From a virus: 34,144 bases of DNA. This document shows, one piece after another, positions 561-33,996 of this stretch. Position 1 is the first letter of the stretch; every line of letters begins with the position of its first letter. Made by a program: the position numbers and the translations under genes. The notes beneath the pieces are model-generated. The model was not told the DNA's origin. It saw only the letters and a program-made list of their open reading frames with translations, and did not search any database. The stretch covers positions 1 to 34,144 of IMG/VR virus record IMGVR_UViG_3300035698_022860, one strand, 5' to 3'.

Positions 561-2204
561 ATGCAACAAGACCTTGAGCAAAGACTTATATCAGGGGTAA
601 CTGATGAATCAGTCTTTAGTAATGTATTAACCAATGGAATAAGTTCAGAGGACTTTATTGTTCATTATGAAGAATTTAGTTTTATGCAAAAATACTTTAC
701 CAAATATAACTCTTTACCTGCTAAAGCTATAATTGAATCTACTTTTCCTGGTTATACTTATTTAGACGATGTAAAAGAACATGAGATTAAATATTTATGT
801 GATGAGTTAATAAAAGCAACTACTAAAAGAAAAGCCATTCAGTATATTAATAGTTCATCTGACCTTTTGTCTATTGATACTTATGGAGCTATAGATTCTC
901 TAATAACTAAATTATCTAATATACGCAAACCATCTGCTAATTCAAGAAGTTTTGCTGATGGAGATGCTATGAAACGTTATGTTGATGTAGTTAAGAGCCG
1001 TGATAAAATTGCGAAAGGTGTTTCTACTGGAATACGAACAGGAATAGGATTTTTTGATGATAAATACTTAGGTTGGCAACCTGGAAATTTAATTGGTATT
1101 GTTGGTAGATTAGGTGTTGGAAAGAGTACAGTCGCTCAATATATAGCTTGCCAAGCATATAAAGCAGGTAAGCGAATATTATTCATATCTCCAGAAATGT
1201 CTACTGACGAAATCAATTTAAAGTTTGATACATTTATGGGTAAGATGAATGGATATAGTTTCTTAAATGATCAATTACAGACTGGTGAAATAAACTTAAA
1301 AGAATATAAGAAATGGCTTGAAGAAGTATCTATTAGAAAAGATTGGTTGACATTAGACAGTGCTAATGGAAAGAAATTTAATGTTGGGAATATTACCGGT
1401 TTTGTGCAGGAGTTTTCTCCTGATTTAGTTGTTGTTGATGGTGTTGCATTAATAGATTCTTCAGGGACTGAAAGCTGGCAGAAGACTATGGATGTAAGTT
1501 ATGGTCTTAAGTCAATGGCACAGAATAATAAAATTGTTACAATAGCAACTTCACAGGCGAATAGAGATGTTAAAGATAAAATGCCAAGACCTGATCAAGT
1601 TTCATTTGGTGATGCCTTTATGCAAGCTTGTTTAGTTCCTGGGGCACCAATTAGAAGAGCATCAAACAAACAGGGATATTTTCCAATAGAAGAAATAAAG
1701 AAAGATGATTTAGTTTTTACTCATAATGGCAGGGCAAGAAAGGTTATAAAGACTCTTAAAAGAAATATTAATGAAGAAATTTTTAAGCTTTATTTAAGTA
1801 ATTATGAAATTATTAGAATAACTGGTGAGCATAAGTTATATACTACTAATGGTTGGGTTGAAGCTAAAAACTTAAATATAAATCACATTTTGTATAAATT
1901 ATCTGATGTTAGTAAAACAGTATTTTTTAAAGATAAATTATTAATTAGTAATGGAACAAAAATCTTAAAGATAGAAAAGGAATTTTATTCTGGACCAGTA
2001 TATAATTTAGAAGTTGAGGAGGATAACTCATATTGTGGTAAAGGAATTATATACCATAATTGCGATGCAGGAATTTTTATCCAGCAAGATATAAATAAAC
2101 CATTAATGAGATATATGACAATTCCAAAGAGACGTACCGGAAGAGCAATTAATACTCCGATAGAGATTAAGTTTGATATAAATCAAGGTTTAATATCAAT
2201 GTAA
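561..2204 (+). CDS. DnaB/gp41-type replicative DNA helicase containing a mini-intein
   Basis: 547-residue precursor. The RecA-like motor has Walker A GRLGVGKST at residues 182-190 and a Walker B-type LVVVDG at 289-294; an N-terminal helical domain occupies about residues 1-125. After removal of an intein at residues 357-500 the mature helicase would be 403 residues, a normal size for phage DnaB-like enzymes. It unwinds DNA ahead of the fork and should act with the primase encoded 0.4 kb downstream. The start is supported by GGGAG at 548-552. The extein junction reads MQA-CDAGIF, restoring the conserved C-terminal motor segment. The family assignment is firm; a choice between DnaB and T4 gp41 type is not possible by eye. 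Confidence 0.9.
   Translation: MQQDLEQRLISGVTDESVFSNVLTNGISSEDFIVHYEEFSFMQKYFTKYNSLPAKAIIESTFPGYTYLDDVKEHEIKYLCDELIKATTKRKAIQYINSSSDLLSIDTYGAIDSLITKLSNIRKPSANSRSFADGDAMKRYVDVVKSRDKIAKGVSTGIRTGIGFFDDKYLGWQPGNLIGIVGRLGVGKSTVAQYIACQAYKAGKRILFISPEMSTDEINLKFDTFMGKMNGYSFLNDQLQTGEINLKEYKKWLEEVSIRKDWLTLDSANGKKFNVGNITGFVQEFSPDLVVVDGVALIDSSGTESWQKTMDVSYGLKSMAQNNKIVTIATSQANRDVKDKMPRPDQVSFGDAFMQACLVPGAPIRRASNKQGYFPIEEIKKDDLVFTHNGRARKVIKTLKRNINEEIFKLYLSNYEIIRITGEHKLYTTNGWVEAKNLNINHILYKLSDVSKTVFFKDKLLISNGTKILKIEKEFYSGPVYNLEVEEDNSYCGKGIIYHNCDAGIFIQQDINKPLMRYMTIPKRRTGRAINTPIEIKFDINQGLISM
1629..2060 (+). other. Helicase mini-intein (144 aa, no endonuclease)
   Basis: Begins at Cys357 (CLVPGAPI) and ends in YHN at residue 500 of the helicase precursor, followed by Cys as the +1 nucleophile. 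A block B-like TGEHKLY with its histidine and a block F-like YNLEVEEDNSY are visible. At 144 residues it has no room for a homing endonuclease, so it is a splicing-only element. The insertion lies in the C-terminal part of the RecA-like core between FGDAFMQA and CDAGIF. Splicing by the class 1 route is inferred from the Cys...His-Asn/Cys residues. Confidence 0.9.
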
Positions 2205-14609: not shown

Positions 14610-14935
14610 GCATAACTTACTTTACTAAAGTCCAAAATGAAGTTGAAAAATGGCTAGTAGATTTAGGTTTTAGGGTTAAATCTGAGGTAGATGTTGAGCA
14701 ATATAGAGTTGATTTAGCTGTTTCAGAATTAGACATGGTTGTTGAAATTGATGGACCTTCACATAGGAAATTAAAAGCAGAAGGAAATTTAATTACTAGT
14801 GAATCACCTCAGATGAGTAAACGAGATAAATTAGTATTGGAATATTACCCGAATGGTGTGTTTCATATTCCAGTAAATATAGATGAAGAAACATTTAAAA
14901 CAGTATTTATGGATATTATAAAGGATTTTGACTAA
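14606..14935 (+). CDS. Small Vsr/DUF559-like endonuclease-fold protein
   Basis: 109 residues. The middle reads VDLAVSELDMVVEIDGPSH (residues 35-53), with Asp36, Glu47 and Asp49, then KRDKLVLEYY; this is the restriction-endonuclease-like core seen in DUF559 and Vsr-type proteins. The coupled position between the recombinase and a RecB-like nuclease suggests a role in DNA ends or junctions. Free-standing homing nuclease origin is also possible since Vsr-like endonucleases occur elsewhere in this window. The start overlaps the recombinase TGA. Confidence 0.6.
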   Translation: MSITYFTKVQNEVEKWLVDLGFRVKSEVDVEQYRVDLAVSELDMVVEIDGPSHRKLKAEGNLITSESPQMSKRDKLVLEYYPNGVFHIPVNIDEETFKTVFMDIIKDFD

Positions 14936-15612
14936 TGCAAAAAGGATTAACAGCAATACTTGATCAGTTAGATACCAGAGATTGGCTTCAGAAAGCTTTA
15001 TTTGAAATTTCTGAAGTGAATAAAAGACCAACAAAACCACTTGATTACTTTTATGCTTCTTGGGCAGGTGATTGTCCTAGAGGAATACAGTATATAATGA
15101 ATGGACTAATGCCATTTGATATTGATGCTAAAGGCAGACGGATAATGGATAATGGTAATTATATGCACACTAGATATGGTGACTATTTTAAGTCCATCAA
15201 AAGACTGATTGGGGAAGAGCCAGCATTTAGAAAAGATATGGATGGAGTTTTTATATCAGGCAGAGGGGATTTAATTGTTTTAGACGAGCTTGAAAAACCA
15301 CAATTAATAGAATTAAAATCTATTAATGACCGAAGGTATAAACTGATACTTAATGCTCCGGATGAAGGTGATTATTTACAATGGAATTTATGTGCCAAAG
15401 CACTTGGATTTACAACAGGTGCAGTTTTCTATGAGAATAAAAATACACAAGCTGTAAAATATCACTATGTTACTTATGATGAGAAAAGGTATAAAATAGT
15501 ACTAGATGACTTTCTAATGGTTAAGAAATATAATGACCTTGGTAAATTAGTACCAAAGCCTGAAGTTTGCCCAAATCCAAAATGGTGCGCAATGAGAAAG
15601 AGCTGCAAGTAG
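14935..15612 (+). CDS. Cas4/RecB-like PD-(D/E)XK nuclease with Fe-S cysteines
   Basis: 225 residues. The nuclease motifs are SGRGDLIV (Asp112), IELKS (Glu126, Lys128) and YLQWNLCAKALG (Gln149), in RecB order. Cys47 (GDCPRG) plus Cys212, Cys218 and Cys224 near the C-terminus form the one-plus-three cysteine set of Cas4/AddB-type 4Fe-4S nucleases. It should resect DNA ends, feeding the recombinase encoded just upstream. The ATG overlaps the previous stop (TAATG). No CRISPR array is present in this window, so it is a recombination nuclease by context. Confidence 0.82.
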   Translation: MQKGLTAILDQLDTRDWLQKALFEISEVNKRPTKPLDYFYASWAGDCPRGIQYIMNGLMPFDIDAKGRRIMDNGNYMHTRYGDYFKSIKRLIGEEPAFRKDMDGVFISGRGDLIVLDELEKPQLIELKSINDRRYKLILNAPDEGDYLQWNLCAKALGFTTGAVFYENKNTQAVKYHYVTYDEKRYKIVLDDFLMVKKYNDLGKLVPKPEVCPNPKWCAMRKSCK

Positions 15613-16910: not shown

Positions 16911-18260
16911 ATGGCACAATGGTCAGACAACGCAAAGATAATACTTGAAAAAAGGTATTTATTAAAAGATAAAAAAGGTAATTTAACTGAGACACCTGAT
17001 GAACTTTTAGTTAGAGTGGCACGACATATTTCTTCATCAGAAAAAGAGGAAGATAGAGAAAAATGGTTCACTCAATTTATGTCAATTTTAGATACTTTAG
17101 AATTTCTGCCAAATAGTCCAACCTTAATGAACTCTGGCAAACCAAATGGACAGCTTGCAGCATGTCTTTCAGGTGATACTATAGTTAGGACTTTGGAAGG
17201 AGATTTCACAATCAAAGATTTGTCTGAAAAATATAAAGACAAACAGAATGAAAGATTTGACGTTTATTCAGCATCAGGAGTAAATTCTTTGGAGATTGGC
17301 AAGGCATTCGCTCCTAGAAAAACTAGATCAAATGCAGATGTTTTTAAAGTTACTTTTGATGACGGTAGTTTTGTAAAATCTACAGAAGAACATCTTTTCA
17401 TGACTAGAAATGCGCAATATAAACGGTTAGATGAATTAAAAATTGGTGATTCAATGATGCCTTTTAATTATGATTATAACCATGGGTATCGAGTAGTATT
17501 TTCTAGCATCAGTGGAATGCCTATGACTGCACATAAATTCGTGTATGGTAAAAATACTGGCCAATATAAAATGTACTCAAATGTACTACACCATATAGAT
17601 TTCAACAAAAATAATAACAATTTTACTAATTTAAAGTTGATGGATAAACTTGAGCACTTTTTGTATCATTCACAAAATTTCAGTGGTGACAACAATCCTA
17701 TGAGAAGATTTCCTGAATTGTGTGAAATGCCCAGAAAAGAAAGAATCTTTAACCACAAAGTAGTTTCTGTAGAGTATTTTGGGAAAGAAGATGTGTATGA
17801 TTTGTCAGTGGAAAAATACCATAATTTTGCAGCTAATAATGTTTTTGTTCATAATTGTTTTGTTTTAGATATTCAAGATGATTTAGCAAATATATTTGAA
17901 ATTGTGAAGCAATGTGCTCTTATACATAAAAGCGGAGGTGGTTGTTTTAAAGATGGAACTGAAGTTATAACTAAAAGTGGAGTTAAAAACATAAAAGAAT
18001 GTTTTACAAAAGAATCTGTCTTGTGTTATAATACAAATGAGAATAAATTTGAATGGGGTTTTGTTACGGAAGTTTTTAAAACTGATGTAATTAAGAAAAA
18101 GAAAGTGGAAATAGAATTTGAAAATGGGGAGAAAATAATTTGTACAGAAGATCACCCATTTTTAGTAAATTTTAATGGAATAGAAAAATGGGTCAATGCT
18201 TCAAAATTAACCTCAGAAATGGACATTGTAAATTATGAAAGTTTTAAACAATCAAAGTAA
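16911..18260 (+). CDS. Class II ribonucleotide reductase, fragment 1 (with intein 1 and N-half of split intein 2)
   Basis: 449-residue precursor. Extein residues 1-84 and 316-344 are the N-terminal part of an adenosylcobalamin-type reductase (LEFLPNSPTLMNSG, QLAA-CFVLDIQDD, IHKSGGG). The first redox cysteine, equivalent to E. coli Cys225, is the +1 residue of intein 1. The chain ends inside an intein that has only its N-terminal 105 residues, so this fragment is expected to join fragment 2 by protein trans-splicing. AGGAGG precedes the ATG at 16911. It has no ATP-cone. The reductase makes dNTP precursors from ribonucleotides. The gene stops at 18260 in TAA. Confidence 0.92.
   Translation: MAQWSDNAKIILEKRYLLKDKKGNLTETPDELLVRVARHISSSEKEEDREKWFTQFMSILDTLEFLPNSPTLMNSGKPNGQLAACLSGDTIVRTLEGDFTIKDLSEKYKDKQNERFDVYSASGVNSLEIGKAFAPRKTRSNADVFKVTFDDGSFVKSTEEHLFMTRNAQYKRLDELKIGDSMMPFNYDYNHGYRVVFSSISGMPMTAHKFVYGKNTGQYKMYSNVLHHIDFNKNNNNFTNLKLMDKLEHFLYHSQNFSGDNNPMRRFPELCEMPRKERIFNHKVVSVEYFGKEDVYDLSVEKYHNFAANNVFVHNCFVLDIQDDLANIFEIVKQCALIHKSGGGCFKDGTEVITKSGVKNIKECFTKESVLCYNTNENKFEWGFVTEVFKTDVIKKKKVEIEFENGEKIICTEDHPFLVNFNGIEKWVNASKLTSEMDIVNYESFKQSK
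17163..17855 (+). other. RNR intein 1 (231 aa, HNH insert)
   Basis: Residues 85-315 of fragment 1, starting CLSGDTIV and ending VFVHN before Cys. Block B is STEEHLFM. An HNH-type homing endonuclease core is embedded (VLHHIDFNKNNNNFTNL), followed by DNNPMRRFPE, a short module also found in intein 3. The intein interrupts QLAA/CFVL, so its +1 cysteine is the redox cysteine of the enzyme. Boundaries follow from clean rejoining of the extein. Confidence 0.9.
17943..18260 (+). other. Split intein 2, N-terminal half (105 aa)
   Basis: Begins CFKDGTEVIT right after IHKSGGG and ends at the TAA. Block A, a block B (TEDHPFL with its histidine) and the end of the N-terminal splicing domain are present; blocks F and G are missing and appear 1.1 kb downstream. 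The length is close to known naturally split N-inteins. The last 26 bases overlap a homing endonuclease gene. Confidence 0.9.
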
Positions 18261-19356
18261 ATATACCTGTAAAATATGCGGAAATATTTATTCAAATAAT
18301 ATTTTTACTAAACATTTAAAAAAATACCATAATATTCCATCAATGATAGAATATGCTTTTTATCATGATAAGAATTTAATTAATGCAAAAATTTGTAAAA
18401 TTTGTGGTAAAAAAAGAGATTTAAAAAGTTTATTAGACCATCCTAATTCATCTACATGTAGCAAAGAATGTGATTACAAAAATAAAATATTGATAACTAA
18501 AAAAAATAATGGTGAAGATTTTTTAAGAAAAAGAGCTTTAAAAGCCTCTTCCTCTAGAGATCCTAAAGCTTGTTCTAAAGCCCAAATAAATTATTGGATA
18601 AAAAAAGGATTTTCTAATGAAGAAGCAATCAATAAAGTATCTGAATTTAATAGAAAAGCTTCAAAAAGATGCATAGAATACTATTTTGGTAAAGGATATA
18701 ATGAAATAGAAGCTAAAAATGAAGTACTTAAATACCAAAAAGAATCAAGCCCTAGATGCAAAGAATATTGGGTAAAAAGAAATTGTACAGAAAAAGAAGC
18801 TTTAGAAAATATTAGTAATTTTGCTTCAGTGTGTAAAATAGAAAATTTTATTTCTAAATATGGTTTATTAGAAGGTGTTCTTAGATATAACAAATATATA
18901 GTTTCAATTAAAGATTCTAATTGTTTTACTATTAATGGTTGGACTAAAAAAGGATATACAATTGAACAAGCAATAGATAAAGTTAAATCAATAGAAAAGA
19001 AAGCTCATTCTAATATAAGAAAACTAAGAATATTTGAAAGAAGTTTAATCCCAGTATTATCTAGTTTAAATATAAAATATGAATCAAGCAAAATAATAAA
19101 AATCAATAAACAATATAAGGGAGCCAATAAATACTATTTATGTTTAGATTATTTTATATCAAAATATAATTTGAATATTGAGATGGATGGGTATTTTTGG
19201 CATAAGGATAATGGAGAAGAAGACAAATACAGAGATGATTATTTAAAATTATTGGGCTATACTATAATTAGAATTAAAGAAAATGAATGGATTAATTTAA
19301 CTGAAGATGAAAAGAAATCTATTATCAGGAGAAAAATATGCGAATTAAGTCAGTAA
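18235..19356 (+). CDS. Free-standing Vsr-like homing endonuclease inside split intein 2
   Basis: 373 residues. The N-terminus has a C2H2-like finger (CKICG ... HLKKYH) and a second CKICG knuckle. Four tandem repeats of about 30 residues follow, with the pattern KKGFSNEEAINKVSEF, GKGYNEIEAKNEV, KRNCTEKEALENI and KKGYTIEQAIDKV, probably DNA-reading modules. The C-terminus has the EDxHD-type Vsr-like nuclease core LNIEMDGYFWHKD, then LLGYTIIRIKENEW, as in I-Bth0305I. Its ends overlap the N-half (26 bases) and C-half (19 bases) of the intein, so it fills the break exactly. No good ribosome binding site is visible; coupling to the upstream stop is likely. Confidence 0.85.
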   Translation: MKVLNNQSKYTCKICGNIYSNNIFTKHLKKYHNIPSMIEYAFYHDKNLINAKICKICGKKRDLKSLLDHPNSSTCSKECDYKNKILITKKNNGEDFLRKRALKASSSRDPKACSKAQINYWIKKGFSNEEAINKVSEFNRKASKRCIEYYFGKGYNEIEAKNEVLKYQKESSPRCKEYWVKRNCTEKEALENISNFASVCKIENFISKYGLLEGVLRYNKYIVSIKDSNCFTINGWTKKGYTIEQAIDKVKSIEKKAHSNIRKLRIFERSLIPVLSSLNIKYESSKIIKINKQYKGANKYYLCLDYFISKYNLNIEMDGYFWHKDNGEEDKYRDDYLKLLGYTIIRIKENEWINLTEDEKKSIIRRKICELSQ

Positions 19357-19448
19357 ATCCTATTGAAGTTGAAGATAAATATTTTTATGATTTAAATGTT
19401 TACCCTAATAATAATTATGTTTTAAATAATGGAAATGTAGTGCATAAT
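19338..19448 (+). other. Split intein 2, C-terminal half (37 aa)
   Basis: From the ATG to VVHN at residue 37, followed by Thr as +1 residue. Block F (YFYDLNVYPNNNYVL) and block G (GNVVHN) are present. With the N-half at 17943-18260 it completes a Hint domain, and ligation would give HKSGGG-TGIIFSK, the expected reductase sequence. Confidence 0.9.
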
Positions 19449-21047
19449 ACTGGAATTATATTTTCTAAGATTAGGCCTACTGATAGCATTGTTGAAAGTA
19501 CTTGTGGAGTTTCCAGCGGTCCTGTATCATTTATGAGGTTATTTGATGTTGCAACAGATGTTGTTAAACAAGGCGGGACTCGTAGAGGTGCTAATTTAGG
19601 ACTTTTACATGTTTCACATCCGGATATATATGAATTTATTAGATGTAAAAATGATTTAACTAGATTTAATAACTTTAACATTTCTGTTGGAATAACAGAT
19701 AATTTCATGAAAGCAGTTAAGCAAGGAAATAGCTATCCTTTAAGACATCGAAAATCAACTGAAAAAAGATATATCAAAGCAAATGATTTATTTAATGAAA
19801 TATGCCATCAAGCTTGGGTAACAGGAGATCCTGGTTTAATATTTTTAGATACTATTGAGGACAGAAATCCAACCCCCTGGTTAGGTAAACTTGAAGGGGT
19901 AAATCCATGTGTTACAGGAGATACTTTGATAGCTGTAGCAGATGGTAGAAATGCAGTTTCTATTAAACAATTGACAGAAGAAGGAAAAGATGTTCCTGTA
20001 TATTCTAGAAAAGATAATGGAAAAATAACAGTTAGAAATATGAGAAATCCTAGAATTTCTGGATATCATCTTCCAATATATGCAATAGAAATAGAAAATG
20101 GAGAAATATTAAAAACTACCGGAAATCATAAATTTGTTTTATCTGATGGAATAGAAAAGGAAGCTAAAGATTTGATTAGTGGAGATTCTCTTTCTATAAT
20201 GAAGAAAACTAAAGCTAGATTTGATGAAGTGTTAAGTCATTCAAATAGTAAATCCCAAGAATATTATTGGGTAGAAGGAACTAACCAGCAAAAGATACTT
20301 GACCATCGTCTTATTGCTAACTTTAATTTTGGACCCATTGGTTATAAAAAAGTAGTTCATCATAAAGATAGAAATGGACTGAATAATTTTCCAACAAATC
20401 TAGAAGTTATGTTAAAAAAAGAACATGACATTCTTCATTCCAAAGATATGCTCGGTGAAAAAAATCCTATGAATAGATTTCCTGAGAAGAATTGGAGAAA
20501 TAATCCAGACTTACAACAAAAAATGAGAGAAAAGAATCATATTGGGGCAAAAAGAAGCCAAGAAACTTGTGAAAATATTTCTTTATCTTTAAGAGGAAGA
20601 ACTTTAAAGGAAAGAGGGCACAAAGAGAATTGCACTTGTTCATTTTGTAAACCTAATTTTGATGTTTTTATTAGAAATAGAGCTAATAATAAACTCCTTG
20701 AATGTCAATCTAAAACTGATTTATTTTGCTTTTTAGATAATAATACAGTTATGGTAAAGAAAATTTGTGAAGGTTGTGGTAAAGAATTTGTAAGAAAATG
20801 GTCCAAGAGAGAAGTTTCATATTGTAGTATATCATGCTGGGATAGAGTTTTAGCCAGTAAAAGAAAAGGAATTCCAAAGAAACAATTTATATATACTAAC
20901 CATAAAGTTATATCTGCAAAAGTTGATGGTTATGAAGATGTGTATAATGGAACTGTTGATGATTTTCATAATTATTTTATTGGAGGATTTGAAGAAGATA
21001 AGTCTACTGTTTTTGTGAATACTTTACAGTGTGGGGAAACACCTTAG
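19338..21047 (+). CDS. Class II ribonucleotide reductase, fragment 2 (C-half of split intein 2, intein 3)
   Basis: 569-residue precursor. Residues 1-37 are the C-terminal intein half; extein resumes at TGIIFSKIRPTDS (residue 38) and runs through GPVSFMRLFD and KQGGTRRGANLG to LEGVNP at 190. Intein 3 fills 191-564, then CGETP is followed by an in-frame TAG at 21045-21047. Rejoined, the active-site motif is NPCGE, which holds the thiyl-radical cysteine and its Asn and Glu partners. The open reading frame would otherwise continue unbroken into fragment 3, so the stop falls inside a conserved block. AGGAG lies about ten bases before the ATG. Confidence 0.9.
   Translation: MRIKSVNPIEVEDKYFYDLNVYPNNNYVLNNGNVVHNTGIIFSKIRPTDSIVESTCGVSSGPVSFMRLFDVATDVVKQGGTRRGANLGLLHVSHPDIYEFIRCKNDLTRFNNFNISVGITDNFMKAVKQGNSYPLRHRKSTEKRYIKANDLFNEICHQAWVTGDPGLIFLDTIEDRNPTPWLGKLEGVNPCVTGDTLIAVADGRNAVSIKQLTEEGKDVPVYSRKDNGKITVRNMRNPRISGYHLPIYAIEIENGEILKTTGNHKFVLSDGIEKEAKDLISGDSLSIMKKTKARFDEVLSHSNSKSQEYYWVEGTNQQKILDHRLIANFNFGPIGYKKVVHHKDRNGLNNFPTNLEVMLKKEHDILHSKDMLGEKNPMNRFPEKNWRNNPDLQQKMREKNHIGAKRSQETCENISLSLRGRTLKERGHKENCTCSFCKPNFDVFIRNRANNKLLECQSKTDLFCFLDNNTVMVKKICEGCGKEFVRKWSKREVSYCSISCWDRVLASKRKGIPKKQFIYTNHKVISAKVDGYEDVYNGTVDDFHNYFIGGFEEDKSTVFVNTLQCGETP
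19908..21029 (+). other. RNR intein 3 (374 aa, HNH insert, C-terminal Gln)
   Basis: Starts CVTGDTLIAV after NP and ends FVNTLQ before CGE. The block B-like TTGNHKFV is visible. The insert has an HNH core (VVHHKDRNGLNNFPTNLEVM), the EKNPMNRFPE module shared with intein 1, and two zinc knuckle pairs (CTCSFC; CEGCG ... CSISC). The last residue is Gln rather than Asn and the penultimate His is absent. Terminal Gln is documented for a few inteins, including the iridovirus RIR1 intein, and can still splice. Its +1 residue is the radical cysteine. Confidence 0.85.
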
Positions 21048-21092
21048 ATTCCAGGGGAATCTTGTAATTTAGGCTCAATTGATATTTCAAGA
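21045..21092 (+). other. In-frame TAG and untranslated-looking extein stretch with stem-loop
   Basis: TAG replaces the residue usually Leu in CGEQPL-type motifs. The next 15 codons, still in frame, encode IPGESCNLGSIDISR, which contains the second redox cysteine (E. coli Cys462 equivalent). A perfect 6-bp stem with a 3-base loop (GATTCC-AGG-GGAATC, 21047-21061) begins on the G of the TAG. The arrangement could mark readthrough, a recent nonsense mutation or a sequencing error; the sequence cannot decide. Confidence 0.8.
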
Positions 21093-21785
21093 ATGGTTCA
21101 AGCTAATGGTAAATTTAATTGGGATAGACTTGACGACGTAGTTTCTATCGCAGTTAGATTTTTAGATGACCTGATTGATGTTAACCATTTCCCAAATGTT
21201 AAAATTAAGAGAATTACTGAGAGAACTAGAAAGCTAGGTCTTGGAGTAATGGGTTTTGCTGATGCTTTAATTTTAATGGGTATTAAATATAATAGTGAAC
21301 AAGCCCAGAAATTTGCTAAGAGATTAATTATGAATATTAGAGAAAATGCTCATATAGTATCTCGTGACTTAGGTAAAGAAAAGGGTTTTGGTGAATTAAA
21401 ATCAATTAAACGACGTAATGCCACATTAACTGTGGTGGCTCCCACAGGATGCCAAACAAAAAATAATGTTATACAAACAAATTTGGGGAATAAGAGTATT
21501 GAACAAATATTGATTGAAAGTAATATTTATTATAAGGAAACAGAAAAAATAGGAAATAAGAAATGGTTTTCCATTCCTGATATAAAAGTAAAAACAAAAG
21601 ATGGAGAAGGTATTTCAAATAAGATATACTATAATGGACTTGCTTCTGTTAAGGAAATAACTTTTGAAGACGGAAATATATATGAATTTACTTATAATCA
21701 TCCATTACTTGTTAATAGGGATAATTCACAATTATGGGTTCCTGTTTCAGATTTAAAAATTGGAGATGATATTGTTAAATTTTAA
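21093..21785 (+). CDS. Class II ribonucleotide reductase, fragment 3 (with N-half of split intein 4)
   Basis: 230 residues if started at the ATG at 21093, which has no ribosome binding site; homology clearly begins earlier, at 21048, directly after the TAG. Extein residues 1-119 include RTRKLGLGVMGFADAL and NATLTVVAPTG. Residues 120-230 are the N-half of a second split intein. Starting at 21093 would remove the SCNLGS redox cysteine, so a working enzyme needs the TAG to be read through or an unusual ATT start at 21048. The fragment ends in TAA at 21785. Confidence 0.85.
   Translation: MVQANGKFNWDRLDDVVSIAVRFLDDLIDVNHFPNVKIKRITERTRKLGLGVMGFADALILMGIKYNSEQAQKFAKRLIMNIRENAHIVSRDLGKEKGFGELKSIKRRNATLTVVAPTGCQTKNNVIQTNLGNKSIEQILIESNIYYKETEKIGNKKWFSIPDIKVKTKDGEGISNKIYYNGLASVKEITFEDGNIYEFTYNHPLLVNRDNSQLWVPVSDLKIGDDIVKF
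21450..21785 (+). other. Split intein 4, N-terminal half (111 aa)
   Basis: Starts CQTKNNVIQT right after VVAPTG and ends at KIGDDIVKF. Block B is FTYNHPLLV with its histidine. Blocks F and G are absent here and are found at 22991. The extein has Gly at -1 and the partner half has Thr at +1, the same pair as in split intein 2. Confidence 0.9.
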
Positions 21786-21809
21786 ATTTATATAAAAATG
21801 TTATATAAT
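21781..21809 (+). promoter_or_regulatory. Promoter for the second homing endonuclease (TTTAAA-N17-TATAAT)
   Basis: TTTAAA at 21781-21786 and a perfect TATAAT at 21804-21809 are separated by 17 bases. The expected transcript starts near 21816, and GGAGG at 21835-21839 stands ten bases before the ATG at 21850. The promoter overlaps the end of the intein N-half, so the endonuclease can be expressed apart from the reductase. Confidence 0.55.
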
Positions 21810-21849
21810 TACTATACAAGTAATAGCAGTAAAAGGAGGAATTATTTGT

Positions 21850-23004
21850 ATGGTAGTTTGCAATGAATGTGGAAAGCAATATAAATTTTTAGTACGTCAT
21901 CTTAAAAGAGAACATAATTTATCATTGGAAGATTATGCAGAAAGATACAAGGAAGAATTATTTAATGAATTTGAAAATAAATATTATGATTATTTTTATT
22001 GTAAAATATGTGGAGCTAGATTCATGTTAGCTATGAAATATAATAAAATATCTTTAGAAAGATGTTCTAAATGTAAGGCAAATGGTACTAAGTCAAGATG
22101 GCAATCGATTTATGGAGAAGTTTTAGGAAATCAAAAATATTTAGCTTTTATTAAAGATACTAGATTTTCTAAGGCCAAAGCTATTGAAAAATATGGTTTA
22201 GAAAAAGGTACAATAAAAATAAATAATTGGCTTAGTAAAACTAATCAAAGTAAAGAAGGTTTTATACAAAGGTATGGAGTTGATAAAGGTGAAGAGTGTT
22301 ATAATTTATTTGTTGAAAAATCAAAACAAACATTAGAAAAATTTATTAAAAGGTATGGTTCTGATGGGAATGCTTTATATAAAGCATATTGTGATAATAA
22401 AACTAAAAAATTTAAAAGTAAATTAAATTATTACAAGTTATTTGGATTTTCTGAAGATGAAGCTATTAGTTTACGTTCCAAATACCAAAAATGGGTTTGT
22501 AGCAAAGAGAGATATATTTTAGAATATGGAGAGAAAAAAGGGATAGAGCTTTACAATATTTTAAGACAAAAACAGTTAGAAAATTATAATGGAAGCTCCT
22601 CAATTGAGAAAGATTGTTTTTTAGAATTAAAAGATATATTAAATTTAGATAATATAACAGTTTTCTTTGGAGATAAGCAATATTTTTGTTCTATAAAAGA
22701 TAATTTTTATTTTCTTGACTTTTATGATAAATGTTTTAATATTGCAATTGAATTTTATGGTGATTATTGGCACGCTAATCCAAGAATTTATAATGATTAT
22801 GATAAATTCCAAAGAGATGGTAACAAAGTGTTAGCTAAAGAAATTTGGGAAAAAGATAAAATAAGAGAAAGGAATATAATTGATAATTTGAAATGTAATT
22901 TTTTTATTATCTGGGAACGAGATTGGAGATATAATAAAGTATCAGTAATAAATAAGATAAAAGAAATTTATTTAAACAGAGGAGAATTAAATGAAAATAA
23001 CTAA
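21850..23004 (+). CDS. Free-standing Vsr-like homing endonuclease inside split intein 4
   Basis: 384 residues. The N-terminus has a C2H2-like finger (CNECG ... HLKREH) and two more cysteine pairs (CKICG, CSKC). The middle holds repeated blocks of the form RYGVDKGEECYNLF, RYGSDGNALYKAY and EYGEKKGIELYNIL, likely DNA-binding modules. The C-terminal nuclease core is FLDFYDKCFNIAIEFYGDYWHANP, cited here by its key residues Glu, Asp and His, followed by NFFIIWERDW; this is the EDxHD Vsr-like fold. It is a relative of the endonuclease at 18235 but with different repeats. GGAGG precedes the ATG, and its end overlaps the intein C-half by 14 bases. Confidence 0.87.
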   Translation: MVVCNECGKQYKFLVRHLKREHNLSLEDYAERYKEELFNEFENKYYDYFYCKICGARFMLAMKYNKISLERCSKCKANGTKSRWQSIYGEVLGNQKYLAFIKDTRFSKAKAIEKYGLEKGTIKINNWLSKTNQSKEGFIQRYGVDKGEECYNLFVEKSKQTLEKFIKRYGSDGNALYKAYCDNKTKKFKSKLNYYKLFGFSEDEAISLRSKYQKWVCSKERYILEYGEKKGIELYNILRQKQLENYNGSSSIEKDCFLELKDILNLDNITVFFGDKQYFCSIKDNFYFLDFYDKCFNIAIEFYGDYWHANPRIYNDYDKFQRDGNKVLAKEIWEKDKIRERNIIDNLKCNFFIIWERDWRYNKVSVINKIKEIYLNRGELNENN

Positions 23005-23095
23005 AATAAGAGATATGGGTGAAAAACAAACTTGGGATATAGAAGTATTACCTCAACATCATTATTTATTGTCTAATGGATGTGTATCACATAAT
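22991..23095 (+). other. Split intein 4, C-terminal half (35 aa)
   Basis: From the ATG to CVSHN at residue 35, followed by Thr. Block F (TWDIEVLPQHHYLL) and block G (SNGCVSHN) are clear. It pairs with the N-half at 21450-21785, with the endonuclease gene between them. Confidence 0.9.
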
Positions 23096-23500
23096 ACTTT
23101 ATCAATGTTAGCTGATTGTTCATCAGGCATAGAACCACTCTTTGCCAAGAAGTTTACTAAGACAGTTCTTGATGGAACCTTATTTGATTTGTCTAAGAAG
23201 TATGAAGATAGTAATGATGACTTATTGGTTACTGCTCATGACATATCAGTTTTTGACCATATTAAGATTCAGGCTGCCTTCCAGACATATACCGACGGAG
23301 CTGTATCAAAAACTATTAATTTGCCACATGATGCAACTGAGAATGAAGTACGTGATGCTTATATGTTTGCTTGGGAAACTGGATGTAAAGGAATTACAGT
23401 TTATAGAGATGGTTGCAGAGCAGGTGGCCCATTAGATGTTTCTAACATTATTGAGAATGGTGTTACAGAATGTTCAAATGGTCGATGTTCAGTATTATAG
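22991..23500 (+). CDS. Class II ribonucleotide reductase, fragment 4 (C-terminal part with C-half of split intein 4)
   Basis: 169 residues: 35 of intein, then 134 of reductase starting TLSMLADCSSGIEPLFA. ETGCKGITVYRDGCR is the C-terminal signature of class II enzymes, and the end CSNGRCSVL carries a C-x4-C pair expected to exchange electrons with the active site. Ligation to fragment 3 gives VVAPTG-TLSMLAD. GGAG at 22981-22984 supports the ATG. Together the exteins add up to about 540 residues, counting the TAG position. Confidence 0.92.
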   Translation: MKITKIRDMGEKQTWDIEVLPQHHYLLSNGCVSHNTLSMLADCSSGIEPLFAKKFTKTVLDGTLFDLSKKYEDSNDDLLVTAHDISVFDHIKIQAAFQTYTDGAVSKTINLPHDATENEVRDAYMFAWETGCKGITVYRDGCRAGGPLDVSNIIENGVTECSNGRCSVL

Positions 23501-24458: not shown

Positions 24459-25229
24459 ATGATAAATGTTTGTAAATGTGGTTGTGGTTTAGAAGTTAAA
24501 AGTGGTAATTTGTATATTAACGGACATAATAAAAGAAAAGAAAATTCTACAATTAAAAAACAGTGTATTATATGTGGAAATACTTTTAAGAGTTATAAGC
24601 ACAAAAAACAAAATACTTGTTCAAAAAGTTGTGGATTAATGTCAATGGCATTAACAAATACAGGAAGAAAAAATACTGCAGAATCTTGCAAAAAGATTAG
24701 TAATTCATTGTTAGGAAATACAAATTTTTTGGGTCATACTCATTCAGAAGAAACTAAAAATAAAATACGATTAAAATCTAAAGAACAATGGAATAATAGT
24801 TTAACTCGAAGTAAATTACTATTTGGAATTACGAAATCTATATTATCTGGTAAATATACACCTCAAAATAATTCTTTTATTGGAAGAGGATATAAAGAAG
24901 ATTTAGGTCACTTTGTTAGAAGTACATGGGAAGCAAATATTGCCAGGGTATTAAATTATTTAAAAATAAATTATGAGTATGAATCAAAAAAATGTAGATT
25001 TGAAACTGATTATGGAATTATAATATTTGATTTTTATATTCCATCTAAAGATATTTATTTAGAGCCTAAAGGGTACATATCCAATAAACAAAAAATAAAA
25101 TATTTAAATTTTGTAGATAAATATCCAAAAATAGCTAAAAAAGTTTATATAATTGATGGTGAAGTTTATAATAAAATAAGTGAAAAGTTTAATGAATTGT
25201 TACCTATATGGGAAAGAAGAAATAAATAA
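24459..25229 (+). CDS. Free-standing homing endonuclease (NUMOD3 plus PD-(D/E)XK)
   Basis: 256 residues. The N-terminus has cysteine knuckles (CKCGCGLEV; CIICGNTF ... CSKSCG). Two NUMOD3-type helices follow (NTGRKNTAESCKKIS and HTHSEETKNKIRLKS), a DNA-binding motif of homing endonucleases. The C-terminal nuclease domain has RSTWEANIARVLNYL, IIFDFYIPSK and YLEPKGY, giving the Glu, Asp and Glu-x-Lys of a PD-(D/E)XK core. It differs from the two Vsr-like endonucleases in the reductase. It is not inside an intein or an obvious intron, and no ribosome binding site is visible. Likely target: a neighbouring gene in related phages. Confidence 0.75.
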   Translation: MINVCKCGCGLEVKSGNLYINGHNKRKENSTIKKQCIICGNTFKSYKHKKQNTCSKSCGLMSMALTNTGRKNTAESCKKISNSLLGNTNFLGHTHSEETKNKIRLKSKEQWNNSLTRSKLLFGITKSILSGKYTPQNNSFIGRGYKEDLGHFVRSTWEANIARVLNYLKINYEYESKKCRFETDYGIIIFDFYIPSKDIYLEPKGYISNKQKIKYLNFVDKYPKIAKKVYIIDGEVYNKISEKFNELLPIWERRNK

Positions 25230-31158: not shown

Positions 31159-33996
31159 ATGGTAAGGATAGGTGATTTTGTACCTGATATCATTAACAAA
31201 GATACTAAGTTAACTGAAGGTAATCAGTGGCTTAATAAAATATATGATAAGGGTTTCTCAGGCTTCATGAAGTCTCAATATGGTTCTGAGACTAATTCTC
31301 AGTCAGCTGCTCAGTATTATGGTATTGAACAACTTTACTTTGATTGGCTACGTCAAGCATATGCTTATCGAAGAATGTTTATACAAGATTTATATTTATT
31401 AGCATTTGATAGCTCTGAAATTAGGTCTCCATTATTACATCTTAAAAAAGAAATTTTTAGAAAAGGTTTTGATGATTTCCACCCAAAATTTCTCTGGAGA
31501 TGTGATGAATGTGATATGGATTTTCAGAGCATAGAAGATGCTAAAAAACACAAGAAGAAAAAAGGTTGTAAAGACCATAAATTAAGAAAACCTGATGACA
31601 GCCAAATTAAAGACTTTGATAAGAAATGGCGTTATAATTGTAATATATTTGGACAGGACTTAGAAAGTGTATTAAATTCTATAGAAGATGATTTAAATAT
31701 TGTGGATGATGCTTACATTCACTTAAATAAACAGTATAGAAAAGTAGGTAATAAATTACATGGTCAACTTCTTGAAGTTAGACGAATTCATCCTGCTTTA
31801 ATTGAATTTGATTTAGACAAAGCAGGTCTTCCTAAAAATAGTCATTGGATATGTCCTTTTCATCGTGATGATGTTAGAGCAGAAGATGGAACATGTGAAA
31901 CATGTCATGCAAAATTACTTCCAGCTATGTATGTGTATAACCATAGAGGTGGAAGAGTATACATGCTAGAAGATGAGCTTATTCATGTTTCTAAATTTAG
32001 TCCTCATGAGACCTACGGGTATTCTCCAATTCTAACGTTAATGCAAAAAGTTTTAACTGTATCAGGTATGGATAGATTTTTATACCGTTACTTCTTCGAA
32101 AGAAAAACTCCTACTCAAATGATTTTAACTAATACTGATGATCCACAGTCTCTTGAAGTTGAAAGAGCTAGAATGGAATCCAAGATGTTAGAAGATCCAA
32201 CCTATACACCATGGATTGCTGTAAGTAATAGAACTGGCCGTGGGAAGACTGATGTTGTAAAATTGTTTCATACTCTTCAGGAAATGGATTACTTAAATGT
32301 AAGAAATGAAATTAGGGACAGAATAGCTGGAATCTATGGCGTTCCTCAGATGTTCTACAATGTAATGGAGGGAACTGGTGGAATATCCGGCCAATCAGTT
32401 TCAGGCGATACTCCAATTTGGATTAGAAGAGATAAGAAATTTCTTGATTTAATTCCAATTGAATCTTTACACAAAGGAACTGCAAATGAATATAATTTAA
32501 TTCCACAAAACACGGAAGTATATTCACAAGATGGTTGGACTAAAATTAATCATGTTTGGAGACATGTGACTAAAGAAAATGAAACTTTAGCTATAGAAAC
32601 TAATGGTGGTTTTGTTGAAACAACAATGGATCACTCTGTCATGAAAAATAAGATGGCTATTAAATCATCTGACTTAAAAGAAAATGATTTAATAGATATA
32701 AAACAAATTGATATTGAAAATAATTTTGATTCAATTACCCCTGATTTAGCATGGTTCTTAGGTTTTTATGCAGCTGAGGGGCACCTAGAAAGATGTCGAT
32801 TTAGTGTATGCAATACCAATATAGAATTAATAAATAAAGCTTCAAATATTCTCGAATCAACATTCAATAAGGAAATTTATAAATATGAGAGAGAACCAAG
32901 AGAACGGAATAAAACATTAGCTTATGTCACATCTATTTGTGGTAAATTAGAAGCAGAATATATTAAGTCTTTATGTTATGAATCTTATAATATTAAAGAC
33001 TTAAATAAGACAAAAAATAAAAAGATTAAGAAAGTTCCTATCCAAATATTAAACGGGTCCAAAAAAATAAAAGAAGCATATCTTGAAGGATATATTGATG
33101 GAGATGGAACAAAATTTGATAATGGGTTTAGATGTACTTCAACATCATTGGTGTTAACTGCAGGCATAGAATACTTAGCTAAATGTCTTGATTATTCAAT
33201 GAATGTTGAATTTAGAAATGATAATAATTTAAACAGGAATTGGAGCAATAATTGGAGATTAACATCTAGAAAGAAAGAAAAAGAAATAGGAAGAATAAAA
33301 AGGATTAGGCGAATTAAGGCACCAAGATTTGTTTATGACATAGAGACAGAAAGTCATACCTTTGTTGGTGGTATTGGAAATATTGTTCTTCATAATACCC
33401 AGCAACTTAAAATGATGAGTAATGTTGTTGCATCTGACCAAAGATTATTCAATGAAAAAATAATTCCAGCAATATTAAAAGCAATAGGTATTACTGATTG
33501 GGAAATTTTCTTAAGAACTCCAGAAGAGAAAATTGAAGGAGAAGTTTTACAATTAGCACAGCAAAAAGTAGCTATAGCAACTTCGATGAGACAATTAGGT
33601 TTTGACATTAAATTAAAACCAGGTGTTTGGGACATAGATACACTTGATTTCTCATTTGGTGGTAAGGCTTTAAGTCTTGAAGAGCAGCAACAGCAGCAAA
33701 TGGAGATGATGAGTGGTGGAATGGGTGGTAGTATGGCAGAAGGTCAAGGAGGTGCTGTACCTGTTGATGAAAATGGTATGCCAATGCAGGAAGGCCAAGA
33801 AGGGGCAGGTGGAATACCTGTAGATACTCCTACAGAAGATGGAAAACGACCTTTAGCCTTGGAAGAAGGAGCAGAAATTGATAGAGAAGCAGTTCCTAAA
33901 AAGCATAGATTAGAAGAAGTTGAATATGATGTACCTACCCCTGAAGAGGAGGATGAAGAAGAAGAGGATAATAATGAAAATAAGGTTTGGAATTAA
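31159..33996 (+). CDS. Portal protein containing a LAGLIDADG intein and zinc knuckles
   Basis: 945-residue precursor; 613 after removal of the intein at 415-746. The extein has the portal pattern LTVSGMDRFLYRYFFERKTP, QEMDYLNVRNEIRDRI and YGVPQMFYNVMEGTGG, then QRLFNEKIIPAIL and ITDWEIFL. Two metal-binding-type inserts occur before it: CDECDM ... CKDH at about 115-140 and CPFHRDD ... CETCH at 232-250. The tail is Gln/Met/Gly-rich and then acidic. The portal forms the DNA entry ring at one head vertex and is the terminase partner. GGGAG precedes the ATG. Confidence 0.86.
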   Translation: MVRIGDFVPDIINKDTKLTEGNQWLNKIYDKGFSGFMKSQYGSETNSQSAAQYYGIEQLYFDWLRQAYAYRRMFIQDLYLLAFDSSEIRSPLLHLKKEIFRKGFDDFHPKFLWRCDECDMDFQSIEDAKKHKKKKGCKDHKLRKPDDSQIKDFDKKWRYNCNIFGQDLESVLNSIEDDLNIVDDAYIHLNKQYRKVGNKLHGQLLEVRRIHPALIEFDLDKAGLPKNSHWICPFHRDDVRAEDGTCETCHAKLLPAMYVYNHRGGRVYMLEDELIHVSKFSPHETYGYSPILTLMQKVLTVSGMDRFLYRYFFERKTPTQMILTNTDDPQSLEVERARMESKMLEDPTYTPWIAVSNRTGRGKTDVVKLFHTLQEMDYLNVRNEIRDRIAGIYGVPQMFYNVMEGTGGISGQSVSGDTPIWIRRDKKFLDLIPIESLHKGTANEYNLIPQNTEVYSQDGWTKINHVWRHVTKENETLAIETNGGFVETTMDHSVMKNKMAIKSSDLKENDLIDIKQIDIENNFDSITPDLAWFLGFYAAEGHLERCRFSVCNTNIELINKASNILESTFNKEIYKYEREPRERNKTLAYVTSICGKLEAEYIKSLCYESYNIKDLNKTKNKKIKKVPIQILNGSKKIKEAYLEGYIDGDGTKFDNGFRCTSTSLVLTAGIEYLAKCLDYSMNVEFRNDNNLNRNWSNNWRLTSRKKEKEIGRIKRIRRIKAPRFVYDIETESHTFVGGIGNIVLHNTQQLKMMSNVVASDQRLFNEKIIPAILKAIGITDWEIFLRTPEEKIEGEVLQLAQQKVAIATSMRQLGFDIKLKPGVWDIDTLDFSFGGKALSLEEQQQQQMEMMSGGMGGSMAEGQGGAVPVDENGMPMQEGQEGAGGIPVDTPTEDGKRPLALEEGAEIDREAVPKKHRLEEVEYDVPTPEEEDEEEEDNNENKVWN
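32401..33396 (+). other. Portal intein (332 aa, LAGLIDADG)
   Basis: Starts SGDTPIWI after GQSV and ends VLHN before Thr. The first nucleophile is Ser. TTMDHSVM is block B. Two LAGLIDADG motifs are visible: AWFLGFYAAEGHLE at 531-544 and AYLEGYIDGDGTKF at 640-653, so the endonuclease looks intact. Block F/G is VYDIETESHTFVGGIGNIVLHN in part (key residues Asp, His, Asn). Ligation restores GQSV-TQQLKMM in the portal. Confidence 0.92.

What the first reader, a model, noticed from the sequence alone, without database searches (positions are those of the whole stretch)
16911..23500. One reductase gene broken by two split inteins, each holding a homing endonuclease gene
The class II reductase is spread over four open reading frames. 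At two places the intein is cut: an N-half ends at a stop, a separate Vsr-like endonuclease gene follows, then the C-half opens the next fragment (105+37 and 111+35 residues). Single fractured genes of this kind were described from environmental phage sequences (Dassa and co-workers, 2009); two in one gene, plus two cis-inteins, is far more complex. A working enzyme needs two correct trans-splicing events and two cis-splicing events.
Basis: partly seen in the sequence, partly recalled or inferred. Interest (0 to 1): 0.93.

Follow-up and report, generated by a model that had tools for sequence, protein, structure and literature searches.

The report
Phage reductase gene in trans-splicing pieces
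An uncultured phage carries a DNA-building-block enzyme gene invaded by four inteins, two of them cut in half by endonuclease genes, so the enzyme would have to be assembled from separately made pieces; a stop codon in the middle leaves open whether this copy still works.

Summary
The class II ribonucleotide reductase (nrdJ) at 16911-23500 carries two contiguous inteins and two split inteins (105+37, 111+35 residues), each split by an endonuclease gene. The joined exteins align end to end with an uninterrupted syntenic orthologue (433 of 536 positions identical). Each insertion site holds an intein in some other locus; at site 4 a relative has the same intein in one piece, with a five-residue linker where this virus has its endonuclease gene. 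Endonuclease 2 has a Vsr/I-Bth0305I-like catalytic domain (model).

Three corrections. (1) Two splits give three fragments; the fourth ORF comes from an in-frame TAG at 21045-21047, where 158 of 161 viral and 80 of 80 cellular relatives have leucine. TAG is a normal stop here, so this record encodes no full-length enzyme unless the TAG is suppressed or is an error. (2) Multiple fracture is not unique: a doubly and a triply fractured class II reductase, a doubly fractured class I reductase and a DnaB-like helicase occur in other viral contigs. (3) Fractured genes are common: 45 of 61 distinct relatives of endonuclease 2 lie between free intein halves. No splicing was tested.

The parts
16911..17162 (+). 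NrdJ extein 1 (84 aa)
   Evidence: Ribonuc_red_lgN E 8.5e-21
17163..17855 (+). contiguous intein 1 (231 aa), HNH-like insert, site AA|C, ends VHN|C
   Evidence: 19 aa at 89% identity just before the same junction at the start of contig L086; an intein at the same site in L164
17856..17942 (+). NrdJ extein 2 (29 aa)
17943..18260 (+). split intein 2, N-half (105 aa, then TAA), site SGGG|T
   Evidence: block B TEDH; Pfam Hint 26.1 bits, below its cut-off 29.7; the same site holds a contiguous LAGLIDADG intein in L327
18235..19356 (+). free-standing endonuclease gene 1 (373 aa; start overlaps the N-half by 26 bases, no clear ribosome site)
   Evidence: DUF559 28.1 bits (cut-off 20.6), MTES_1575 33.3 bits (cut-off 38.2), RAP 27.2 (cut-off 24.2); zinc-finger-like N-terminus read; no relatives; a weak 75-aa match in L081/L135
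19338..19448 (+). split intein 2, C-half (37 aa), own ATG with AGGAG upstream, ends VVHN|T
19449..19907 (+). NrdJ extein 3 (153 aa)
19908..21029 (+). contiguous intein 3 (374 aa), HNH_3 insert, site NP|C, ends VNTLQ|C
   Evidence: homologue at the same site ending INTMQ|C in L086, about 60% identity
21030..21044 (+). NrdJ extein 4a (CGETP)
21045..21047 (+). in-frame TAG stop inside the reductase; leucine in 158 of 161 viral loci and 80 of 80 genome loci with a residue there, no stop in any
21048..21449 (+). NrdJ extein 4b (134 aa), 88% identical to L002
21450..21785 (+). split intein 4, N-half (111 aa, then TAA), site APTG|T
   Evidence: 56% identical to the N-part of the contiguous intein at the same site in L079/L080
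21850..23004 (+). free-standing Vsr-like endonuclease gene 2 (384 aa), AAAGGAGG upstream
   Evidence: C-terminal domain of the model: Vsr 1cw0 Z 10.7, I-Bth0305I 3r3p Z 10.1
22991..23095 (+). split intein 4, C-half (35 aa), own ATG with AGAGGAG upstream, ends VSHN|T
   Evidence: (76% over 34 aa to L080)
23096..23500 (+). NrdJ extein 5 (134 aa), ends in TAG as in L002

Best explanation
A phage class II ribonucleotide reductase gene that has collected inteins at four insertion sites used elsewhere too. At two of them the intein was later broken by a free-standing endonuclease gene, which gave the N-half a stop codon and the C-half its own ribosome site and ATG. The enzyme would be made as three polypeptides (but for the TAG), joined by two trans-splicing reactions (split inteins 2 and 4) and trimmed by two cis-splicing reactions (inteins 1 and 3). 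The endonucleases would spread intein plus endonuclease into empty alleles by homing. In this record a TAG after intein 3 interrupts the middle polypeptide; I read it as a recent nonsense change or a sequence error, not part of the design. Shown: anatomy, site occupancy, relatives in several states, a modelled fold for endonuclease 2. Inferred: splicing, homing, activity, nature of the TAG.
For: Anatomy and retained splice residues. Uninterrupted syntenic orthologue L002, joined exteins identical at 433 of 536 positions; 15 of 15 other L002 proteins match the window once each and in order, 3 of them over only 54-74% of their length. The contiguous form of intein 4 at the same site in L079/L080 (identical over the 11,991 bases compared) has a 5-residue linker (NEVFE) where the window has stop + endonuclease + ATG. 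All four sites hold inteins elsewhere: site 1 L086, L164; site 2 L327; site 3 many; site 4 contiguous in L079/L080, split in L174, L204 and, by motif, L219. Relatives of endonuclease 2 lie between free halves in 45 of 61 distinct loci; control 0 of 455 ORFs in 164 NrdJ loci. The same arrangement around DNA polymerase in Vibrio phage VPALA, Tenacibaculum phage PTm1, Lak-C1 and Campylobacter phage CP21, and in CP21 nrdA. Extein changes per site are fewer at codon positions 1+2 than at 3 in all five pieces, the two after the TAG included.
Against: The in-frame TAG: as read, no full-length reductase. No splicing data. Intein 3 ends in Leu-Gln, not His-Asn; L086 has the same Gln end, so it is probably a working variant, not shown. 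No relative of split intein 2 is close enough to show its unsplit form (L327's intein is distant). 12 of 61 endonuclease loci show only a C-half and 4 neither. In 117 distinct viral NrdJ clusters no other fracture was seen, so the state is rare among close NrdJ relatives.
Confidence: 0.78

Rival explanations
1. The gene is dying: inteins and endonucleases have broken it and the TAG marks loss of function; the phage relies on the host reductase and only the endonucleases are kept.
For: In-frame TAG between NPCGE and the next conserved Cys block, in a column that is leucine in 158 of 161 viral relatives; PMC3653736 (passages seen) suspects degeneration of intein-laden nrdA in Campylobacter phages.
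Against: No other stop or frameshift in the reductase, intein or endonuclease pieces; the pieces after the TAG are as conserved (88% and 82% aa) as those before it (75-90%); ribosome sites kept at both C-halves.
Confidence: 0.2
2. The pieces work by non-covalent association, without trans-splicing, like the reductase that an endonuclease split into two still functional peptides.
For: That precedent (Friedrich 2007) is named in a passage of PMC10448857 and in a reference list; the paper itself was not read.
Against: Here both breaks carry complete intein halves with catalytic residues; unspliced halves would sit inside the barrel domain (inference).
Confidence: 0.05
3. TAG is read as an amino acid (code 15 or host suppression), so the TAG is no break.
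For: A phage with a related endonuclease and fractured polymerase, Lak-C1, reads in code 15.
Against: TAG ends nrdJ in both window and L002; TAG ends the 14935-15612 and 25269-25823 genes where the L002 orthologues end in TAA at the same place; ARAGORN finds no tRNA in the window, which may be incomplete. Host suppression cannot be tested.
Confidence: 0.05
4. Assembly artefact: endonuclease genes or the TAG placed here by misassembly or base error.
For: Single metagenomic record, no reads; L176 differs from L174 by a missing base inside a reductase piece, so such errors or variants occur.
Against: The split at the same site with the same endonuclease family recurs in other contigs, L174/L175 and L204. 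For the TAG alone there is no counter-evidence.
Confidence: 0.04

Closest known systems
Fractured genes with split inteins and Vsr-like endonucleases (Dassa et al. 2009, NAR 37:2560; paper not held, recalled; cited in papers seen)
   Same: Enzyme gene broken by a split intein with a free-standing endonuclease gene between the halves, in phage; Vsr-like family for endonuclease 2.
   Different: As I recall its abstract, genes are broken in two; here one gene is broken twice by split inteins, keeps two contiguous inteins as well, and has a TAG.
NrdJ-1 natural split intein (its use seen in PMC7090010 passages)
   Same: Split intein from an NrdJ.
   Different: From memory NrdJ-1 sits at NPC|S; the split inteins here sit at SGGG|T and APTG|T.
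L174/L175 and L204 multiply fractured class II reductases (IMG/VR, found here)
   Same: Two and three split inteins in one reductase; split at the site of intein 4 with an endonuclease of the same family.
   Different: Other second and third sites; no contiguous intein or stop seen in the pieces read.
Tenacibaculum phage PTm1 DNA polymerase (annotated 'intein-containing split DNA polymerase precursor' + 'VSR endonuclease')
   Same: Relative of endonuclease 2 between IntN and IntC.
   Different: Polymerase; its other break has an endonuclease-like ORF but no intein half that I could see.
Campylobacter phage CP21 DNA polymerase and nrdA
   Same: Each is cut between a free N-half and a free C-half, the polymerase with a relative of endonuclease 2 in between.
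   Different: One split-intein break per gene by the profile scan; not annotated as inteins.
vB_PaeM_MIJ3 split DNA polymerase (PMC6892783, passages)
   Same: Split intein with an endonuclease between polymerase ORFs.
   Different: One split; HNH family by that paper.
Campylobacter phage IBB_35 nrdA with two inteins (PMC3322345 and PMC3653736, passages)
   Same: Phage reductase gene said to be interrupted by two inteins; that abstract speaks of split genes with inteins.
   Different: Not described as two split inteins; its sequence was not examined here. In its relative CP21 I see one split intein in nrdA.
Trichodesmium reductase with four inteins (recalled; only a listing seen)
   Same: Four inteins in one reductase gene.
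   Different: Cyanobacterial, with group II introns (recalled); not checked here.

Membership tests
Fractured gene (Dassa type) | Conserved enzyme gene broken inside an intein, halves on separate ORFs | tested here: met
   contiguous counterpart of intein 4 in L080, which matches solved inteins such as Pho RadA E 1.2e-5
Fractured gene (Dassa type) | Free-standing endonuclease gene between the halves | tested here: met
   endonuclease 2; endonuclease 1: DUF559 above cut-off, fold not modelled
Fractured gene (Dassa type) | Halves trans-splice | not testable with these tools
   only residues checked
Vsr-like homing endonuclease family (I-Bth0305I type), endonuclease 2 | Vsr/I-Bth0305I catalytic fold | tested here: met
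   Z 10.7 (1cw0), 10.5 (1vsr), 10.1 (3r3p), next row 8.7 (a mitoribosomal protein); block pLDDT 76-92 at residues 291-380 but 41-79 at 251-290, 62.5 overall. Foldseek alone: 3r3p E 0.28, Vsr 0.43, none under 0.001, an unrelated row first. Sequence profile: Vsr E 0.017, 3r3p 0.36
Vsr-like homing endonuclease family, endonuclease 1 (18235-19356) | Vsr-like catalytic fold | tested here: inconclusive
   Pfam only; not modelled
Class II ribonucleotide reductase NrdJ | Full-length homology to class II enzymes | tested here: met
   1xje best, E 5e-111, four stretches; 81% to intact L002, which scores 608 bits for NrdJ_Z, cut-off 400
Class II ribonucleotide reductase NrdJ | Open coding sequence for the whole enzyme after splicing | tested here: not met
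   in-frame TAG 21045-21047
Class 1 intein (inteins 1, 2, 4) | Cys1, TxxH, His-Asn before Cys/Ser/Thr | tested here: met
   read; motif definition recalled
Class 1 intein (intein 3) | His-Asn end | tested here: not met
   ends Leu-Gln|Cys; L086 homologue ends Met-Gln|Cys
Genetic code 15 (TAG=Gln) | TAG not used as a stop | tested here: not met

The most novel reading that the evidence does not exclude
The phage really builds one reductase from three separately translated polypeptides by two mutually selective trans-splicing reactions plus two cis-splicing reactions, with amber read-through as a fifth gate; multiply fractured genes are a stable, recurrent state that grows by repeated endonuclease invasion of intein sites.
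Probability: 0.3. Interest if true: 0.85.

Novelty: new variant of a known kind. Interest (0 to 1): 0.62.

Why it matters
It sets reductase genes side by side in successive states: no intein (L002), contiguous inteins (L086, L079/L080), doubly split (this window) and, in other reductases, doubly and triply split (L174, L204). That makes the origin of split inteins directly testable. Two natural split inteins in one gene must also avoid cross-pairing (N-halves 31%, C-halves 37% identical), which makes them candidate orthogonal tools. The limit: function is unproven and this copy has a stop codon.

Tried and rejected
TAG as glutamine (code 15): rejected, TAG ends conserved genes here. A first look at the TAG column in five relatives used a pattern that demanded Leu or Tyr there, so it was biased; I replaced it (158 Leu, 2 Ser, 1 Met of 161 viral loci with a residue, 3 of 164 without; by cluster 112, 1, 1 and 3 without; 80 of 80 genome loci Leu). 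Relatives of endonuclease 1: none. Relatives of split intein 2 N-half in phages: none. Structure of the contiguous intein 4 (L080): pLDDT 50, not used. Promoter brought in with endonuclease 2: a TTTAAA-17-TATAAT match at 21781-21809, but 59 matches against 49 +/- 6.8 expected, so no claim. Rfam: no hit at gathering scores. Selection from L174 against L176: one base apart in 5.7 kb besides an edge gap, too few to use. Two-intein nrdA precedent: a class I reductase query listed 60 of 4850 records, none of them Campylobacter, so I read CP21 directly; one split intein in nrdA, one in the polymerase.

Literature: (all ten searches) listed no paper that I recognised as describing a natural gene with two split inteins. 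Lists were capped (20 of 41; 15 of 17; 15 of 63; 15 of 31; 12 of 22). Four papers hold the phrase 'two split inteins'; by title they are engineered uses, and I did not open them. Only listings, starts of abstracts and the passages named were seen. Dassa 2009 is not held.

Full report
What is there. The window is a 34,144-base virus record, 30% GC, with helicase, primase, thymidylate synthase, DNA polymerase, UvsX-like, RuvC-like, terminase and portal genes on the + strand. The reductase runs from 16911 to 23500 as five extein pieces with four inteins between them. Inteins 1 (231 aa) and 3 (374 aa) are contiguous and hold HNH-type sequence. Inteins 2 (105+37 aa) and 4 (111+35 aa) are split: the N-half ends at TAA, an endonuclease gene follows, and the C-half opens the next ORF with its own ATG and AGGAG-type ribosome site. 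Endonuclease gene 1 overlaps the N-half by 26 bases and has no clear ribosome site.

Is the reductase complete? Yes, apart from one codon. The joined exteins (540 positions, X at the stop) match T. maritima class II reductase at E 5e-111. Contig L002 carries the same gene uninterrupted in the same neighbourhood; 433 of 536 aligned positions are identical and there is no gap at any intein junction. The 15 other L002 proteins that I compared each match the window once, in the same order, 3 of them over only 54-74% of their length. L002 scores above the cut-off of the NrdJ_Z (class II) model.

The extra break. The first and second reductase ORFs are divided by intein 2 and the third and fourth by intein 4, but the second and third are divided by an in-frame TAG at 21045-21047, after five codons of extein beyond intein 3. 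In the alignment column of that codon, 158 of 161 viral NrdJ loci have leucine (2 Ser, 1 Met; 3 of 164 loci have no residue there) and 80 of 80 genome loci have leucine; none has a stop. TAG works as a stop in this virus: it ends nrdJ in both window and L002, and two other genes at the place where the L002 orthologues end with TAA. The first in-frame start after it is at 21093, without a ribosome site and beyond a conserved Cys block. So this record does not encode a working enzyme unless the TAG is suppressed or is an error. The pieces after the TAG are not decayed: 88% and 82% aa identity to L002, with changes per site higher at codon position 3. The TAG lies at the foot of a perfect 7-bp inverted repeat (21046-21062), one of 4 terminator-like sites where 2.0 +/- 1.6 are expected; such repeats are a known context for template-switch errors (general knowledge), but nothing ties this one to the TAG.

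Where the inteins come from. Site 1 (AA|C): the last 19 residues of an 89% identical intein at the start of contig L086, and an intein in L164. Site 2 (SGGG|T): a contiguous LAGLIDADG intein in a Bacillota genome contig, L327. Site 3 (NP|C): the usual site; the L086 homologue is about 60% identical and also ends in Gln. Site 4 (APTG|T): L079/L080, identical over the 11,991 bases compared, carry the same intein in one piece inside a 948-aa ORF; 56% identity over the N-half and 76% over 34 residues of the C-half; the five residues NEVFE stand where the window has stop, endonuclease gene and ATG. The one-piece intein matches solved inteins (Pho RadA E 1.2e-5, gp41-1 E 0.0023), though a designed protein without a passing stretch heads that list. 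Among 164 viral NrdJ loci (117 clusters at 95% DNA identity) 12 clusters show insertions of 250 bases or more, all contiguous, none fractured. That method missed the site 1 intein of L164, and some loci are cut by contig ends, so 12 is a lower bound. In 80 genome loci, 7 show such insertions, all contiguous: six at site 3, one at site 2.

The endonucleases. A profile of both window endonucleases and two relatives (L005, L006) finds Vsr structures first (E 0.017-0.021) and I-Bth0305I at E 0.36. In the model of endonuclease 2 (mean pLDDT 62.5; 76-92 at residues 291-380, 41-79 at 251-290) the C-terminal domain matches Vsr at Z 10.7 and 10.5 and the I-Bth0305I catalytic domain at Z 10.1, the next row at 8.7; Foldseek alone gave no E under 0.001. 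Endonuclease 1 has DUF559 and RAP above and MTES_1575 below their Pfam cut-offs, no relatives in two scans and a weak 75-aa match in L081/L135. Both proteins begin with a zinc-finger-like CxxC...H motif (read; ROS_MUCR for endonuclease 2).

How common is this? I built profiles of free intein halves from the window and relatives. In 61 clusters (90% DNA identity), 45 have a free N-half before and a free C-half after the endonuclease, 12 only the C-half, 4 neither. As a control, 0 of 455 ORFs of 250-460 aa in 164 NrdJ loci met the same flank rule, applied to ORF ends instead of match ends. Named phages show the same thing around DNA polymerase: Vibrio phage VPALA, Tenacibaculum phage PTm1 (annotated as such) and Prevotella phage Lak-C1 (these three helped to build the profiles), and Campylobacter phage CP21, found by the profiles, in its polymerase and in its nrdA.

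Multiple fracture is not unique. Middle fragments with a C-half at the start and an N-half at the end occur in 4 other virus clusters. L174/L175: class II reductase split at NP|C and at APTG|T. L204: class II reductase split at three places, one of them the intein 4 site (APAG|S). L238: class I-type reductase, split twice. L208: DnaB-like helicase, whose first fragment lies off the contig. Reductase classes rest on the best NCBIfam model of the fragments, which as fragments stay below whole-protein cut-offs. In L219 an adenosylcobalamin-dependent triphosphate reductase has one contiguous intein and one split at KPSG|T, the intein 4 motif. The window itself is not flagged by the rule because the TAG divides its middle fragment; but for that stop the architecture is the same, with two contiguous inteins added. 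L176 is the L174 locus with one base missing in the middle fragment.

Mechanism. Shown: anatomy, retained splice residues, intein sites used elsewhere, related genes in empty, contiguous and split states, a modelled endonuclease 2 fold. Inferred: the endonuclease gene entered an existing intein, the halves still associate and splice in trans, and the endonuclease drives homing into empty alleles. The N-halves of inteins 2 and 4 are 31% and the C-halves 37% identical; whether they cross-pair is untested.

Verdict. The anatomy is real and the interpretation largely right, but it is a rich example of a class that is known (fractured genes) and, by this survey, common; multiple fracture appears in four other genes here. 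I found no publication of a natural gene with two split inteins in the ten searches listed under Tried and rejected, which cover only open-licence papers, gave partly capped lists, and of which I saw only listings and passages. The TAG keeps function open.

Noticed in passing
window 31159-33996: The portal ORF (945 aa) holds a 334-aa contiguous intein at 32395-33396 (SGQ|SVSGDT...VLHN|T) with a LAGLIDADG match; the L086 portal reads through at that site.
   Followed up: partly
window 561-2204: The DnaB-like helicase ORF holds a 144-aa mini-intein at 1629-2060, so this 34-kb record carries six inteins, counting the four in nrdJ.
   Followed up: partly
window 24459-25229: A further endonuclease-like gene (NUMOD3) stands between genes that are adjacent in L002.
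   Followed up: partly
window 21046-21062: Perfect 7-bp inverted repeat that begins inside the TAG codon; the L002 sequence there does not form it (read).
   Followed up: partly
L005 3235-6309: A UvsW-like helicase broken by a split intein whose endonuclease gene lies on the opposite strand (name from reading the sequence).
   Followed up: no
L006 3698-6492: An RNA-ligase-like gene broken by a split intein with a relative of endonuclease 2 in between (name from reading the sequence).
   Followed up: no
L219, L226: Loci with two different fractured genes each: DnaB-like and reductase in L219, RecA-like and UvsW-like in L226 (the DnaB, RecA and UvsW names are from reading the sequence).
   Followed up: no
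L238 9298-10059: A GIY-YIG-like endonuclease gene between halves of a split intein in a class I-type reductase, so the endonuclease family in such breaks varies (family name from reading the sequence).
   Followed up: no
HE815464.1 (Campylobacter phage CP21) 33878-36740: PhoH-like pieces with two TnsA-like ORFs between them and an N-half-like match at 35341-35487: perhaps another fractured gene with another nuclease type.
   Followed up: no
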